Shown here: positions 29,285 through 34,669 of the stretch, piece after piece
Layout: each line of letters opens with the position of its first letter
How positions within the stretch are numbered: the first letter of the stretch is position 1
Source: Actinomycetota bacterium
GTDB lineage: Bacteria > Actinomycetota > CADDZG01 > WHSQ01
Length of the DNA stretch: 45,436 nt
Direction of reading: 5' to 3'
Assembly (NCBI GenBank): GCA_009380005.1
Contig: WHSQ01000017.1
Coordinates: 1 to 45,436 of the forward strand
Position numbers and translations under genes: made by a program
Notes under the pieces: generated by a model
Told to the model about the DNA's origin: nothing
Databases searched by the model: none
Seen by the model: only the letters and a program-made list of their open reading frames with translations

Positions 29285-30889
29285 TTATTCCCCGTTGCGG
29301 CGTGGTCGATCGAGGTAGGGCGACTCCGGCAGCTCCTCCACTCGTCCGTCGGCGTGGAAGAAGAGGAAGCGGTCGAGAAGGCGCATGAACCAGCGGTCGT
29401 GGGTCACGGCGATAACCGTGCCCTCGTAGCCGGCCAAGCCGTACTCGAGGGCTTCGGCCGAGTCCACGTCCAGGTTGTCGGTGGGCTCGTCGAGCAGCAG
29501 CATGGTGGGGTTTTCCACCTCCATGAGCAGGATCTGGAACCTGGCTTGCTGGCCACCCGAGAGGGCGCCGAAGCCGTTCGTCGAGGCCCCGTGGAGCTCG
29601 TAGCGACGCAGGGCGGCCATCGCCTTGCCCATCTCCACGCCACGCTTGCGCAAGATGTCGGCGATCGGGAGGTCACCCAGGTCGGGACGGTCGTGAAGCT
29701 GAGAGAAGAGGTCGGGGCGCACCCGGGCACCCAGCTTCCATTCCCCCACGTGTTCGATCGCCTCGCCGGCCAGCAACCTCACGAAGTGCGACTTGCCGGT
29801 CCCGTTGGGGCCCAACACACCGATCCGTTCCCCGTACCAGATCTCGGTATCGAAGGGCCTGACGATGTCGCGGATGGACAGCCCTTTGACTCGCAACGCG
29901 ATCTTGCCGGTCCGGCCCCCGCGTAGCTTCATCCTGATGTCCTGTTCCGACACCTTCTCGCGCGGAGCCCGGACTACCTCGAATCGTTCGATGCGCTTCT
30001 CCATCGACCGAGCCTTGGTCGCGAACTTGTCGTTGAGCGCGGCACGTCTCTTGAACTCCTTCATCGCGGCCACGAGTCTGTCGCGCTCTTCCCTGAAGCG
30101 GCGGTGCTCCTCGTCGATCTTCTCGAGTCTGCGGTCACGAGCCTCGTGGTAGGTCGCGAACGAGCCGGGATGCACCCATACTCCGTTCGCCTCGAGCGTC
30201 ACGACGCGGTGCGACGTCCGCGCCAACAACTCACGATCGTGGCTGACGTACAGGATCGTCTTCGGCGAAGGATCGATCATGTCTTCGAGCCACCTCTTGC
30301 CATCCACGTCGAGGAAGTTGTCCGGCTCGTCCAACAAGAGGACATCCGCGTCCGACCGGAAGAAGATCTCGAGAGCTACCCGCTTCTGTTCCCCGCCGGA
30401 CAATGTCGCCAACGGCCGATGCCCGACCTCATGGAGCCGGAGTCCGAGCGCCGACGAGCAACATGTGTCCCACAAGGTCTCCGCGCCGTAACCTCCGACC
30501 GCTCCCCATCCATGCAGGGCGTCCGCGTAGCGCATGTGCGCCCCCGCATCCGTCGAGCCTGATGCGGCGCTCTCGGCAGCACGGAGTTGCCGAGCGGCGC
30601 TTTTGATCTCGGGGCGGGCAAGCGCGACGAAGAGATCGCGCACCGTCTCAGCCTCCGGGATCGCGCCGATGAACTGCCGCATGAATCCGAGGCGACCGTC
30701 CAGGCGGACGTGGCCCTCCTTCGGCGGTTCCTCGCCGGCGATCACCCGCAGCAGGGTCGTCTTGCCCGTGCCGTTGGCACCGACCAGAGCCACGTGCTGT
30801 CCGTCGCCGACACGGAGGCTCGCGTCGCGGAACAGCACCCGTCCACCGGGAAGGGCATAAGTCAGATCGATCACGTCGATGGAACCCAT
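29285..30889 (-). CDS. ABC-F family ATPase (first of two)
   Basis: A 534-residue soluble protein with two ABC domains and no membrane segment. First domain: Walker A GANGTGKTTLLR, signature LSGGEQKRVALE and LLLDEPDNFLD. The linker (about 240-310) is charged and helical. Second domain: GPNGTGKSHFVR, LSGGQQARFQIL, LLLDEPTDNLD. ABC-F proteins act on the ribosome, either easing stalled translation or giving antibiotic resistance; which applies cannot be told. ATG 30889 has AAGGAT upstream. An in-frame ATG at 30955 would add 22 Pro/Arg-rich residues. Confidence 0.88.
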   Translation of the reverse strand: MGSIDVIDLTYALPGGRVLFRDASLRVGDGQHVALVGANGTGKTTLLRVIAGEEPPKEGHVRLDGRLGFMRQFIGAIPEAETVRDLFVALARPEIKSAARQLRAAESAASGSTDAGAHMRYADALHGWGAVGGYGAETLWDTCCSSALGLRLHEVGHRPLATLSGGEQKRVALEIFFRSDADVLLLDEPDNFLDVDGKRWLEDMIDPSPKTILYVSHDRELLARTSHRVVTLEANGVWVHPGSFATYHEARDRRLEKIDEEHRRFREERDRLVAAMKEFKRRAALNDKFATKARSMEKRIERFEVVRAPREKVSEQDIRMKLRGGRTGKIALRVKGLSIRDIVRPFDTEIWYGERIGVLGPNGTGKSHFVRLLAGEAIEHVGEWKLGARVRPDLFSQLHDRPDLGDLPIADILRKRGVEMGKAMAALRRYELHGASTNGFGALSGGQQARFQILLMEVENPTMLLLDEPTDNLDVDSAEALEYGLAGYEGTVIAVTHDRWFMRLLDRFLFFHADGRVEELPESPYLDRPRRNGE

Positions 30890-30917
30890 AGAGATCCTTG
30901 GTGAAGGGCGGGGCTTA

Positions 30918-30985
30918 GGAGGCACCTCCGGGGACGTGCGCGGTCGCGTCCGCATGGTCGGCCTCGCTCGTCCACGGGAAGTCTA
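30918..30985 (-). promoter_or_regulatory. Possible ABC-F leader region with hairpin
   Basis: TAGACT on the minus strand (30985-30980) could be a -10 box. The following leader contains GGAGG-TG-CCTCC (30929-30918), a short GC hairpin upstream of the ABC-F start at 30889. Translation-attenuating leaders are known for some ABC-F genes, but nothing more specific is visible. Confidence 0.35.
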
Positions 30986-31034: not shown

Positions 31035-31922
31035 TTAAGTTTCGTTGAGTTCGACCGAAACAGTGCGTTCTTCGGTGCCGCGCAGAACGCGCAGCTCGAT
31101 GGCTCCGGTACTCGACTCGAGTGCCTCGGCGAGGTCGTCGAACGAGTGGAGCTCCCGCTCGTTCGCCGCGATCAAGAGGTCGCCCTCTTCCAATCCCGCA
31201 CGGTCCGCGGGGCCGCCTTCCTCGACTCCTCGAACCAGCAGCCCGTCGACCTCGGGCAACCCCACCGCACGGCGCAGGCCGCGCGCGACCTGACCCGATG
31301 CGATGGCCACCCCGAGTCGTCGACGCTGGGGGGTCTCGCCCCGGCCGAGAGCGTCGACGCGCTCCCGCAAAGGATCGCCCGCCGGGATGGCGAGGTAGAA
31401 CCCTTCGCCCAACCGGTTGGTGTTGATCCCGAGCAGATGCCCATCGGGGTCGACCACGGGCCCGCCGGAGGAACCGGGCAGGAGAGGAGCGGTGTGCTCG
31501 AGCGTGCCGGTGATCCGGCGTCCGCGCGGTCCCCGGAAACTGCGTTCGGTGCCGGAAACGAGCCCGAACGTGACGCGGAGGCCGAGGCCTCCCGGGTTCG
31601 ACAACGCCAGCACCGCCTTCCCGATCGAGGGCGCCGAGGCGCCGTTCAGACTCAGAGCGGGAGCCTCGGCGGTGTCCACTTCGATGACGGCGAGGTCGCC
31701 GTCGAGGTCCACGCCGGCCGGCCGGCCCCGTTCGGTGCGTCCGTCGGCGAAGGTGACCGCGACCCCTTCGCCTCGCAGGTTGTGGGCATTGGTGAGGACC
31801 CGGCCGGGGGCGATGACCACGCCGGAGCCCCGGGCCCAGCGGTGACCGATCCCAACGACGGACGGTCCGACGCTCTCGGCGACGCGCGCCACCGCTTCCT
31901 GGAGCCCCTCGATGGTTGTCAT
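31035..31922 (-). CDS. S1C (HtrA-like) serine protease with PDZ domain
   Basis: A 295-residue trypsin-fold protease with catalytic triad H47 (LTNAHNL), D76 (DGDLAVIEV) and S152 (PGSSGGPV). It is followed by a PDZ domain (about 200-290) with GLLVRGVEEGGPADRAGLEEGDLLIAANERELHSFDDL. Unlike usual HtrA/DegP proteins it has no signal peptide or membrane anchor, so it should be cytoplasmic. A GGAGG ribosome site precedes ATG 31922. It is divergent from an HxlR regulator gene with 95 bases between starts, and that gap contains palindromes. Confidence 0.88.
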   Translation of the reverse strand: MTTIEGLQEAVARVAESVGPSVVGIGHRWARGSGVVIAPGRVLTNAHNLRGEGVAVTFADGRTERGRPAGVDLDGDLAVIEVDTAEAPALSLNGASAPSIGKAVLALSNPGGLGLRVTFGLVSGTERSFRGPRGRRITGTLEHTAPLLPGSSGGPVVDPDGHLLGINTNRLGEGFYLAIPAGDPLRERVDALGRGETPQRRRLGVAIASGQVARGLRRAVGLPEVDGLLVRGVEEGGPADRAGLEEGDLLIAANERELHSFDDLAEALESSTGAIELRVLRGTEERTVSVELNET

Positions 31923-31932
31923 GTGCGCCTCC

Positions 31933-31956
31933 TTACTAGTAACTTGCAAGATGCAA
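31933..31956. promoter_or_regulatory. Palindromic operator candidates between protease and HxlR gene
   Basis: TTACTAGTAA (31933-31942) is a perfect 10-bp palindrome directly followed by CTTGCAAG (31943-31950), a perfect 8-bp palindrome, and TTGC-AAGAT-GCAA (31944-31956) overlaps it. TACT further right (31959-31962) pairs with AGTA. The TACT...AGTA elements resemble operators of HxlR-type regulators such as YodB. Confidence 0.55.
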
Positions 31957-32004
31957 TCTACTACTCGGCGGGAGAGAGTCAAGCGTGCGACGAGCGTCTG
32001 CGTC

Positions 32005-32010
32005 TAGCAT
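32005..32010 (+). promoter_or_regulatory. -10 box of leaderless HxlR gene
   Basis: TAGCAT seven bases before the ATG at 32018, supporting this start over the in-frame GTG at 31985. Confidence 0.6.
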
Positions 32011-32017
32011 CCCGAGG

Positions 32018-32434
32018 ATGAGCCCCGACTCGCCCCTCGCCGCGGCCGTCGCCCGGGTCGGCGACCGCTGGAGCCTCCTGATCGTGGACGCCCTGCAGGC
32101 GGGGCCCCGACGGTTCAACGACCTCCTCGCCCAGGTGCCCGGCCTGGCCCCCAATGTGCTCTCCCAGCGCCTCAAGCACCTCGAGCGCGAGGCGATCCTC
32201 GTCGCTCGTCCCTACCAGCAGCGACCGCCCCGGTTCTCCTACGAGCTGACCGCAGCGGGGGCCGAGCTCGCCGGGGCGCTGACGATGCTTGCCCAGTGGG
32301 GGGCCCGGCGCTCGCCGAACCTCGAGATCCCGACGCACGCCGCATGCGGCACGCCGCTGGAGGTGCGTCTCTACTGTCCGACGTGCGCCCGCACCGTGAC
32401 CGACGAGGACGACGCCGGCCTCCGCTACATCTGA
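32018..32434 (+). CDS. HxlR-family regulator with C-terminal Cys motif
   Basis: A 138-residue HxlR winged-helix regulator: VARVGDRWSLLIVDALQAGPRRFNDLLAQVPGLAPNVLSQRLKHLEREAILVARPY, then SYELTAAGAEL. The C-terminal tail carries H107, C110, C120 and C123 (HAACGTP...YCPTCART), which looks like a small zinc-ribbon or redox site. Some HxlR proteins sense electrophiles or oxidants through cysteines; here that is inference. Probable targets are its own gene and the divergent PDZ protease. Confidence 0.88.
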   Translation: MSPDSPLAAAVARVGDRWSLLIVDALQAGPRRFNDLLAQVPGLAPNVLSQRLKHLEREAILVARPYQQRPPRFSYELTAAGAELAGALTMLAQWGARRSPNLEIPTHAACGTPLEVRLYCPTCARTVTDEDDAGLRYI

Positions 32435-32514: not shown

Positions 32515-32739
32515 ATGCCTCTCGTTGCCGCGGGCGTCGTGTTCGTCGCCCTGGGCCTCATCCTGGCCCTATTCGCAAGCACGACCGCCGGCATCATCCT
32601 GGCGATCCTGGGCGCGCTGATGATGGCGTTCGGTTTCACCATGTACCAGAGAGGCTCGGTCGGAGGGGTCGACCACGTGGTCGTTCGCGATCGCCCCGTG
32701 CGTCGTCGCGTCGTCGAGCGCGAGCGCGAGATCCTCTAG
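32515..32739 (+). CDS. Small two-helix membrane protein
   Basis: A 74-residue protein with two hydrophobic helices (about residues 3-22 and 24-43) and a very basic, acidic-alternating tail (RDRPVRRRVVEREREIL). The ribosome site GGAGAGGAG lies just before the ATG. I do not recognise a family. It follows the HxlR gene by 80 bases on the same strand and may share its transcript. Confidence 0.72.
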   Translation: MPLVAAGVVFVALGLILALFASTTAGIILAILGALMMAFGFTMYQRGSVGGVDHVVVRDRPVRRRVVEREREIL

Positions 32740-32752
32740 CCGGATCCTTCGC

Positions 32753-34669
32753 TCAGGCCTCGGCCGCTTCCAAGGAACGGGCCGCGTCCTCCCACGAGCG
32801 TTCCAGCTTCTCGGTGCGCGCTTTCGCCTTCTCGTAGGCCCGTACCAGCTCGGCCACGTCGGCGCCCGATGAATACACATCGGGATCGGCGAGCGTTTCC
32901 GAGAGCTCCGAGAGTTGCTTCGCGACCTCTTCCAACTCGCTCTCGATCCGGGCGATCTTTCGCCGCAGATCGGCCGTCTGGGCACGGACCCGGGCGGAGG
33001 CGCGTCGCCTGTCCTTGGCGCTGATCTGACGGTCCGCGCCGGCGGCCGTCCCGCTAGGAGCGTTCGCTTCGTGATCCCGTTTCGACAGGTAGTAGTCGTA
33101 ATCCCCGTCGAAGACGGTGACCCGGCCCGCCACGACCTCCACGATCCGATCGGCGATGTTGCGGATCAGGTGACGGTCGTGAGTGATCAGCACGACTGCG
33201 CCCGTGTAATCCGCCAGGGCATCCTCCAACGCATCGCGACTCTGGATGTCGAGGTGGTTCGTAGGCTCGTCGAGACACAGCAGATTCACGGGCGATGCCA
33301 GGATCTTCGCGAGTGCCAAACGCGTTCGCTCCCCACCCGACATGACCGCGACGCGTTTATCGATGTCGTCGCCCGAGAAGAGGAACCGGCCCAAGAGATC
33401 GCGGGCCTTGAGGTGGATCCCGGCCGGGACGGCCCGCTCGAACTCCTGGATGATTCGGTTGTTCGGATCGAGAGCCTCGATCTGGTGCTGTGCGAAGTAA
33501 CCGATCGAGGTGTTGTGACCCAGCTTCCGCTCCCCCTCCCGCGGCTGGAGAACGCCCGCCACCAGCTTGAGTAGCGTCGTCTTCCCGGCGCCATTCGGGC
33601 CGACCAGCGCGACCTTGTGGTGCCGTTCGATCGCGAGGTTGAGCTGCTCGTAGACGAGCCGATCGTCGTATCCGAACGCGACATCCCTGAGTTCCAGGAC
33701 GACTCGCCCGGCTCGAGGAGGGGGCGGGAACTCGAGCTTCATCACGCGCCCGGCAGACGAGGGGGACGTCACCCGTTCCATCTTCTCTAGGGCCTTCACC
33801 CGGCTCTGCACCTGCTTGGCCTTCGTCGCCTTGTAGCGGAAGCGGTCGATGAACTCCTGAGTGGCAGCGATCTTGCGGTCTTGAGTCTTGGCCTCGGCGG
33901 CGCGCTGCAGGGCGATGGCCTCCCGCTGACGTACGAAGTCCTTGTAGTTACCCGTGTATGACACGAGTCGGGTCGAATCGATCTCGACGACCTTGGTCGC
34001 GAAGCTGTTGATGAAATCGCGGTCGTGGGAGATCAGCAGGATCGCGCCCTCGTACGAGCGCAGGAAGCGCTCGAGCCATTCGACGGATTCGACGTCCAGA
34101 TGGTTGGTGGGCTCGTCCAACATCAGCACATCGGGTCCGGCGAGCAGCAGCTTGGCGAGGGCGATCCTCATCAGCCAGCCGCCGGACAGGGTCTCGGTCC
34201 GTCGCCGCGTGTCCTCTTCCGAGAAGCCCAGGCCCGCCAGGATCTTCTTGGCCTCGCTCTCGACCGCGTAGCCGCCGATCGCGCTGAAGCGGGCCTGGAG
34301 ACGCCCGTACTCGTCCACGAGGACGGGCCGATCCTCGTCCGACGCTTCGGCCATCTCCGTCTCCAGGATGGCGAGGCGGTGGGCGGTGTCGGTCGCTTCG
34401 GATCCCGCCTTCAGCACTTCCTCGAGCACCGAGCGTCCCCGCAGGTCGTCGGTCTCCTGGCGCAGGAAGCCGATGACGGCGCCCTTGGGGACGTCGATCC
34501 GGCCCCCGTCCGGCGACTGCTCTCCTGCGATCATCTCGAACAAGGTGGTCTTGCCGCTGCCGTTCGGTCCCACGATCGCAACGCGGTCGCGCGCTCCCGC
34601 GTACATCGATGCATCGCGGAAGAGGTATCGAGCGCCGAAGGACTTGTGCAGTCGCGTTATCCGGATCAC
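32753..34669 (-). CDS. ABC-F family ATPase (second, Uup/YdiF-like)
   Basis: A 638-residue ABC-F protein. First ABC domain: GPNGSGKTTLFEM, LSGGWLMRIALAK, LMLDEPTNHLD. A P-site-tether-like linker (about 235-300) is rich in K, R, Q and E. Second domain: GPNGAGKTTLLK, MSGGERTRLALAK, LLCLDEPTNHLD. It ends with a coiled-coil C-terminal domain (about 545-638), the layout of Uup and YdiF. The paralogue at 29285 lacks this tail. It likely assists the ribosome. GTG 34669 is supported by TAGCCT six bases upstream. Confidence 0.9.
   Translation of the reverse strand: MIRITRLHKSFGARYLFRDASMYAGARDRVAIVGPNGSGKTTLFEMIAGEQSPDGGRIDVPKGAVIGFLRQETDDLRGRSVLEEVLKAGSEATDTAHRLAILETEMAEASDEDRPVLVDEYGRLQARFSAIGGYAVESEAKKILAGLGFSEEDTRRRTETLSGGWLMRIALAKLLLAGPDVLMLDEPTNHLDVESVEWLERFLRSYEGAILLISHDRDFINSFATKVVEIDSTRLVSYTGNYKDFVRQREAIALQRAAEAKTQDRKIAATQEFIDRFRYKATKAKQVQSRVKALEKMERVTSPSSAGRVMKLEFPPPPRAGRVVLELRDVAFGYDDRLVYEQLNLAIERHHKVALVGPNGAGKTTLLKLVAGVLQPREGERKLGHNTSIGYFAQHQIEALDPNNRIIQEFERAVPAGIHLKARDLLGRFLFSGDDIDKRVAVMSGGERTRLALAKILASPVNLLCLDEPTNHLDIQSRDALEDALADYTGAVVLITHDRHLIRNIADRIVEVVAGRVTVFDGDYDYYLSKRDHEANAPSGTAAGADRQISAKDRRRASARVRAQTADLRRKIARIESELEEVAKQLSELSETLADPDVYSSGADVAELVRAYEKAKARTEKLERSWEDAARSLEAAEA

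What the first reader, a model, noticed from the sequence alone, without database searches (positions are those of the whole stretch)
31035..32434. Cytoplasmic PDZ protease paired with a Cys-bearing HxlR regulator
The protease has a full triad and PDZ domain but no export signal. The divergent HxlR protein ends in an H-x2-C-x9-C-x2-C motif, and the shared gap holds TTACTAGTAA and CTTGCAAG palindromes. Together this resembles a stress-sensing proteolysis module that I do not know as a described system.
Basis: partly seen in the sequence, partly recalled or inferred. Interest (0 to 1): 0.55.

Follow-up and report, generated by a model that had tools for sequence, protein, structure and literature searches.

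The report
Conserved repressor and internal protease pair
A protease predicted to work inside the cell sits back-to-back with a DNA-binding repressor in many uncultured soil bacteria, and the repressor's end looks like a handle that the protease could grip, which hints at an undescribed feedback switch.

Summary
A 295-aa HtrA-like serine protease (intact triad, one PDZ domain, no hydrophobic N-terminus) is divergent from an HxlR regulator ending in H-x2-C-x9-C-x2-C. The pair is conserved: in a 296-genome phylum sample this HxlR subfamily occurs in 24 genomes, divergent beside the protease in all 24 (12 of them supplied the search models). Of 80 protease loci, 77 carry the HxlR gene nearby. Four proteases without a close HxlR lack the site; where the HxlR moved, the site stayed at the protease. 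I read this as a dedicated repressor-protease module. The Cys motif is probably a zinc ribbon, shared with paralogues outside this subfamily, so "stress sensing" is unproven. New: all 74 complete paired HxlR proteins end in V/L/A/I/M (9 of 32 paralogues do), often as ELR[FYW][VLI], resembling SVRDELRWVF, which activates the HtrA-type protease AlgW. I propose that the PDZ domain binds its own repressor. Binding, signal and zinc are untested. Ten open-literature searches showed no description.

The parts
31035..31922 (-). HtrA-like (S1C-type) serine protease, 295 aa, ATG start, predicted cytoplasmic
31425..31829 (-). trypsin-like peptidase domain (PF13365), triad H47/D76/S152
31047..31328 (-). 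PDZ domain with RLGV carboxylate-binding-type loop (L203 in 75 of 76, G204 in 76 of 76)
31928..31934 (-). Shine-Dalgarno-like AAGGAGG of the protease
   Evidence: sequence; a loose SD pattern is present in 65 of 80 relatives, no control run
31937..31963 (.). 27-bp conserved dyad operator (consensus TAGTAACTTGCAAnTTGCAAGTnACTA)
31955..31982 (-). protease promoter TTGACT-16-TAGATT; the -10 element lies inside the operator
32018..32434 (+). HxlR-family winged-helix regulator, 138 aa
32336..32386 (+). H-x2-C-x9-C-x2-C, putative zinc ribbon
32420..32431 (+). C-terminal tail L-R-Y-I-COOH, putative PDZ ligand

Best explanation
A two-gene repressor-protease module. Strongly inferred: the HxlR dimer binds the 27-bp dyad, covers the -10 element of the protease promoter and represses the protease, and from the same site probably its own gene. 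Inferred: it carries a C-terminal zinc ribbon, and some cue (thiol-reactive compound, zinc loss or a small ligand) loosens it, so the protease is made and degrades damaged or unfolded cytoplasmic proteins. Inferred, newer: the regulator's disordered C-terminal tail (commonest form ELR[FYW][VLI]-COOH) is a ligand of the protease's own PDZ domain. New protease would then either clear its repressor (positive feedback) or be allosterically switched on by it, as MucE's tail switches on AlgW.
For: Pairing: 24 of 24 HxlR-bearing genomes in the phylum sample, 12 of them not used to build the models, and 77 of 80 protease-selected loci. Protein distances of 71 pairs correlate, r 0.62, highest of 2000 permutations 0.23. 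Operator: of 79 sites scoring above 8 in 734,640 bases, 78 lie within 450 bp upstream of the protease. Natural dissection: HxlR unlinked in Acidiferrimicrobium, operator kept at the protease and absent near the moved HxlR; co-directional protease-HxlR in L125, operator upstream of the protease; L102, G049, G258 and G268 without a close HxlR, no operator. Repressor geometry: TTG 13-15 nt upstream of the operator in the protease direction in 43 of 75 gaps, 0-4 at every other position; TAnnnT inside the operator in 50 of 75; window promoter found directly. Tail: 74 of 74 end in V/L/A/I/M against 9 of 32 paralogues (Fisher 2.5e-16); kept in L123, which lost the Cys site, and in the unlinked HxlR; last 8 residues pLDDT 52; AlgW agonist SVRDELRWVF (PMC8545111, passages).
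Against: No binding, zinc, expression or proteolysis data. L080 has the operator although no HxlR was found in its genome; its contig ends just upstream, so the gene may be cut off, but that is not shown. The tail is looser in many Chloroflexota (ends such as RRV, RSL): an aromatic at -2 is in 44 of 74 and the strict acidic-L-[RH]-[FYW]-hydrophobic form in 17 of 74. Relatedness makes the Fisher value too good. The zinc ribbon is not specific to the pair. B. subtilis HxlR itself is an activator. Four proteases persist without a close HxlR or the operator (L102, G049, G258, G268), so the protease does not need this control everywhere.
Confidence: 0.6

Rival explanations
1. The HxlR is an activator of the protease, as B. 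subtilis HxlR activates its target genes on formaldehyde (mechanism recalled; PDB entries listed call it an activator and show a formaldehyde-DNA complex).
For: Same family; divergent layout.
Against: The operator covers the -10 element and its edge sits a median 24 bp from the usual start codon, a place for repressors.
Confidence: 0.12
2. Repressor-protease module as proposed, but the tail has nothing to do with the PDZ domain: it serves another protease (Clp-type degron) or HxlR folding.
For: 15 of 74 tails end in Ala, which Clp-type degrons also use (recalled).
Against: 59 of 74 end in V/L/I/M against 2 of 32 paralogues; the tail is predicted disordered; of 8 distinct paralogues with the same zinc ribbon 2 end in V/L/A/I/M, both in Ala; similarity to an AlgW agonist.
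Confidence: 0.4
3. The C-terminal Cys site is a redox or zinc sensor that directly controls DNA binding.
For: Only conserved cysteines in the protein, 71 of 72 aligned rows; L123 lost all four ligands and its operator is degenerate.
Against: Same motif in paralogues outside this subfamily and a His-to-Cys swap in L133 fit a structural zinc ribbon equally; the N-terminal sensor Cys of YodB is absent.
Confidence: 0.35
4. The protease is exported by a non-classical route and the pair is an envelope stress system.
For: Known HtrA proteins mostly act outside the cytoplasm; 88.84% of bacterial PDZ proteins are predicted to carry a signal peptide, a membrane helix or both (PMC6411480, passages).
Against: No hydrophobic N-terminus in 78 of 80 relatives, and in L100 and L126 only with distant upstream starts.
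Confidence: 0.06

Closest known systems
HtrA/Deg proteases (DegS, AlgW, HhoA, plant Deg1; S1C-type)
   Same: Trypsin-like domain plus one C-terminal PDZ domain; Pfam and NCBIfam hits and fold matches (Deg1 3qo6 E 1e-24, HhoA).
   Different: No signal peptide or membrane anchor by hydropathy; below the cut-off of every NCBIfam model listed; sits beside a one-component regulator.
AlgW/MucE and DegS/OMP-peptide activation
   Same: An HtrA PDZ domain reads a C-terminal hydrophobic tail; agonist decapeptide SVRDELRWVF (PMC8545111, passages; that it is MucE's own C-terminus is recalled).
   Different: Periplasmic, with OMP or MucE ligands and anti-sigma substrates; here the candidate ligand is the protease's own transcriptional repressor, in the cytoplasm.
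HxlR/DUF24 redox regulators YodB, HypR, QsrR
   Same: HxlR winged-helix fold and a dyad operator.
   Different: YodB senses with Cys6/Cys101 and prefers TACT-N7-AGTA (PMC8063818, passages); here there is no conserved N-terminal Cys, a C-terminal zinc-ribbon-like motif, and a different 27-bp operator.
Zinc-ribbon-tailed HxlR paralogues (8 distinct seen in the searched genomes)
   Same: [HC]-x2-C-x9-C-x2-C after the winged helix.
   Different: Outside this HxlR subfamily (58-102 bits) and without the conserved V/L/A/I/M-ending tail in 6 of 8.

Membership tests
HtrA/Deg (S1C-type) protease | His-Asp-Ser triad in a trypsin-like domain | tested here: met
   76 of 76 rows; PF13365
HtrA/Deg (S1C-type) protease | C-terminal PDZ domain with peptide-binding loop | tested here: met
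   PF17820, PF00595, PF13180; L203 in 75 and G204 in 76 of 76
HtrA/Deg (S1C-type) protease | export to periplasm or membrane (typical, not strictly defining) | tested here: not met
   no hydrophobic N-terminus; hydropathy only
HtrA/Deg (S1C-type) protease | trimer assembly and protease activity | not testable with these tools
   no complex prediction or assay
Named NCBIfam HtrA models (Do/DegP, DegS, HhoA/HhoB/HtrA, MarP) | score above the curated cut-off | tested here: not met
   147.3 against 416.2 bits (TIGR02037); all 17 listed models below their cut-offs
HxlR family | PF01638 above the gathering score | tested here: met
   81.9 against 20.8 bits; fold matches YodB, HypR and HxlR
YodB-type thiol sensor | reactive N-terminal Cys (Cys6 of YodB) | tested here: not met
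   the only columns with 3 or more Cys are 110, 120 and 123 (YodB)
Zinc ribbon | four conserved Cys/His ligands in two knuckles | tested here: met
   70 of 72 HCCC, 1 CCCC, 1 lost
Zinc ribbon | bound zinc | not testable with these tools
   needs ICP-MS or structure
HtrA PDZ ligand tail | free C-terminal hydrophobic residue in a disordered tail | tested here: met
   74 of 74; pLDDT 52
HtrA PDZ ligand tail | binding to the paired PDZ domain | not testable with these tools

The most novel reading that the evidence does not exclude
A self-contained cytoplasmic proteolytic feedback switch: a one-component repressor carries at its C-terminus a ligand for the PDZ domain of the very HtrA protease it represses, so that protease level and repressor level (or protease activity) are coupled directly, a DegS/AlgW-like peptide-sensing step moved into the cytosol and joined to a DNA-binding protein.
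Probability: 0.42. Interest if true: 0.78.

Novelty: new variant of a known kind. Interest (0 to 1): 0.58.

Why it matters
HtrA proteases are known mainly as envelope quality-control enzymes. Here one appears to work in the cytosol under a dedicated repressor, conserved across at least two phyla of mostly uncultured bacteria. If the repressor's tail is the protease's PDZ ligand, it would be a compact natural design in which a protease reads and possibly destroys its own regulator, testable with two purified proteins and one peptide. It also gives a defined operator for a zinc-ribbon-tailed HxlR, a class I did not find described in the searches made.

Tried and rejected
Third conserved gene: among the 25 largest clusters of similar reading frames in the 80 loci, nothing beyond the frames lying over the pair itself reached more than 12 loci. 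The small membrane ORF at 32515-32739 has no Pfam hit and no tblastn match in the 80 loci. Plasmid carriage: no match. Global regulon: the operator pattern (up to 2 mismatches) in 18 genomes hit the pair's own site in 14 and 7 other places; the reversed-pattern control gave 4, so extra sites are near chance in number. Two of the 7 score like real sites (28.0 and 21.9 on the 23 central bases, pair sites 24.9-39.8, the other five 6.0-15.7) and are kept as leads. Transfer between phyla: the protease tree separates Actinomycetota and Chloroflexota with few exceptions, so no claim. Co-variation of tail type with PDZ columns: weak and confounded by lineage. Cys-poor protease (71 of 76 rows with none): no control, dropped.

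Literature: ten searches, pairing HxlR with serine protease/PDZ, zinc/cysteine, HtrA, zinc ribbon, divergently/protease and trypsin-like, plus background searches; in the listings and abstract starts I saw no description of this pair. PMC9069715 (HxlR and trypsin-like) was seen as listing and start of abstract only. Papers seen as passages: PMC8063818, PMC2553845 (one reference line, not used), PMC6411480, PMC8545111. The library lacks most subscription papers.

Rows dropped: A1 left out the G060 protease (L016, a stop reported inside). A3 holds the window plus 75 of 80 loci (L065, L067, L087, L116, L126 left out). A4 holds the window plus 71 of 77 (L065, L067, L070, L074, L087, L126 left out). 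Tail counts used 74 of 77 (L067 and L074 broken frames, L070 at a contig edge). The operator matrix used 75 of 76 gaps (L090 has Ns). One search kept the best 80 of 148 relatives.

Full report
What is there. The protease runs from 31922 to 31035 on the minus strand (295 aa). Pfam finds a Trypsin_2 domain (residues 32-166, E 8e-25) and a PDZ domain. The AlphaFold2 model is confident (mean pLDDT 95.1) and matches plant Deg1 and Synechocystis HhoA among its best hits. H47, D76 and S152 are each the same in 76 of 76 rows. The HxlR protein (32018-32434) matches PF01638 (E 3e-23) and folds like YodB, HypR and other HxlR structures.

Location of the protease. In 64 of 80 relatives a start codon lies exactly three codons before the conserved domain, giving N-termini such as MTTIEGLQEAVARVAES in the window. 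The highest 15-residue hydropathy exceeds 1.8 only in L100 and L126, and there only when distant upstream start codons are used. This rests on hydropathy and start conservation, not on SignalP.

The pair is conserved. In 61 genomes (own plus 60 relatives) the protease orthologue (E 3.2e-91 or better) is in 13 and the HxlR orthologue (150 bits or more) in 12, all 12 beside the protease and divergent; in G016 a small ORF lies between. In a phylum sample of 296 genomes the protease (E 1e-70) is in 27 and the HxlR subfamily (E 1e-35) in 24. By the listed coordinates all 24 are beside the protease and divergent; 12 of the 24 are the genomes that supplied the HxlR model, the other 12 are new. The three proteases without it are G049, G258 (a distant relative, 243 bits) and G268 (cut by a contig end). 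A scan of named genomes found 148 relatives by two peptide patterns, of which the best 80 were kept: Actinomycetota, Chloroflexota, one Acidobacteria bin and one Steroidobacteraceae bin. Of the 80, 76 have the HxlR gene divergent (L084 with a gap of 1.1 kb) and one (L125) downstream on the same strand. L080 ends at a contig edge, and L102 and L110 have none nearby. Protease and HxlR distances correlate (71 pairs, r 0.62; highest of 2000 permutations 0.23).

The operator. The intergenic region carries a conserved dyad. A matrix from 75 gaps reads TAGTAACTTGCAAnTTGCAAGTnACTA, 28.5 bits; all 75 score above the 99th percentile of shuffled gaps (the matrix was trained on the same gaps, so this is descriptive). 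In 734,640 bases of the 80 loci, 78 of 79 sites scoring above 8 lie within 450 bp upstream of the protease; the other is in L128, 585 bp upstream. The window's site is 31937-31963.

Natural dissection. In Acidiferrimicrobium sp. IK (L110) the HxlR orthologue lies on another contig (192 bits). The operator stays at the protease (score 33.5), and the 3.4 kb fetched around the moved HxlR gene has none (best -10.8). In L125 the order is protease then HxlR on one strand, and the operator is upstream of the protease (32.3). In L102 no HxlR match (E 1e-10) was found in the genome and no operator. G049, G258 and G268 have only distant HxlR hits (88, 62 and 59 bits) and no operator. In L123 the HxlR lost all four Cys/His ligands and the site is degenerate (13.8). 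Against this, L080 has an operator, yet no HxlR was found in its genome; its contig ends just upstream, so the gene may simply be cut off. L090 cannot be judged because its gap holds Ns.

Repressor geometry. The window gap has one promoter-like match, TTGACT-16-TAGATT on the protease strand, whose -10 element is inside the operator. In 43 of 75 gaps a TTG begins a hexamer 13-15 nt upstream of the operator in the protease direction, against 0-4 at every other position. A TTGACA search in the HxlR direction shows no such peak. TAnnnT fits operator positions 4-9 in 50 of 75. A loosely defined Shine-Dalgarno-like sequence is present in 65 of 80 (no control). A protein on this site should block the protease promoter.

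The Cys motif. Columns 110, 120 and 123 are the only conserved cysteines (71 of 72 rows each). His107 is in 70 of 72, Cys in one (L133) and lost in L123. The His-to-Cys swap at fixed spacing points to a zinc ribbon. The same spacing occurs in 8 distinct HxlR paralogues outside this subfamily. The motif is therefore neither unique to this pair nor proof of stress sensing. YodB senses with Cys6 and Cys101 and prefers TACT-N7-AGTA (PMC8063818, passages). There is no conserved N-terminal Cys here, and the operator differs.

The tail. From the last Cys to the end there are 12-20 residues, acidic on balance. Of 77 paired HxlR proteins, 74 are complete, and all 74 end in V (29), L (25), A (15), I (4) or M (1). 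Of 32 distinct HxlR paralogues 9 end so; leaving Ala out, 2 of 32 against 59 of 74 (relatedness makes the Fisher values too good). The commonest residues are E-L-R-[YF]-[VL]. Many Chloroflexota have RRV or RSL instead, and an aromatic at -2 is in 44 of 74. The tail survives in L123 without the Cys site and in the unlinked L110 HxlR. The model gives the last eight residues pLDDT 52, so they are probably disordered. An agonist peptide of AlgW, an HtrA-type protease, is SVRDELRWVF, and AlgW and DegS accept WVF and YQF tails in their PDZ domains (PMC8545111, passages). The protease's PDZ domain keeps the RLGV loop. I infer, without a binding test, that the PDZ domain reads its own repressor's tail.

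How it most likely works. Shown by sequence: conserved pair, conserved operator over a promoter, intact protease, conserved tail. Inferred: HxlR represses the protease; a cue not identified here relieves this; the protease removes damaged cytoplasmic proteins; the tail couples repressor and protease.

Reach of the regulator. In 18 genomes the operator pattern hit the pair's own site in 14 and 7 other places, against 4 for the reversed pattern. Only two of the 7 score like real sites. They suggest at most a small regulon.

Status. The HtrA-type fold and family features tested are met; typical export is not. HxlR membership is met; YodB-type N-terminal Cys sensing is not. I rate it a new variant of a known kind. 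The literature searches (listed under Tried and rejected) cover open-licence papers only.

Noticed in passing
L148:4905-4931 (Candidatus Solirubrobacter pratensis genome, G297:C3): A second operator-like site (24.5 on 27 bases) directly upstream of an ORF that looks like a truncated haemoglobin (named from its sequence by eye, no family search); possible second target of the HxlR.
   Followed up: partly
L147:5112-5138 (G062:C89): A second operator-like site (25.6 on 27 bases) upstream of an ORF resembling DUF1211/TMEM175 channels (named by eye).
   Followed up: partly
G016:C59 between HxlR and protease (L154): A small YciI-like ORF (named by eye) lies between the operator and the HxlR gene, making a longer gap.
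   Followed up: no
L039, L041, L043, L044, L166, L170, L171, L173: Zinc-ribbon-like tails with the same x9 spacing on HxlR paralogues, apparently a wider HxlR class; the window's own tail matched no Pfam domain and the one HxlR/zinc-ribbon paper search did not describe it.
   Followed up: partly
window 29285-30955 and 32753-34669: Two ABC-F-like double-ATPase proteins flank the pair (Pfam ABC_tran twice each; ABC_tran_Xtn).
   Followed up: no
operator of L057/G009 and L058/G056: Extra half-sites repeat at 7-bp steps (such as GTAACTTGTAACTTGCAAGTTAC), perhaps for more than one dimer.
   Followed up: no
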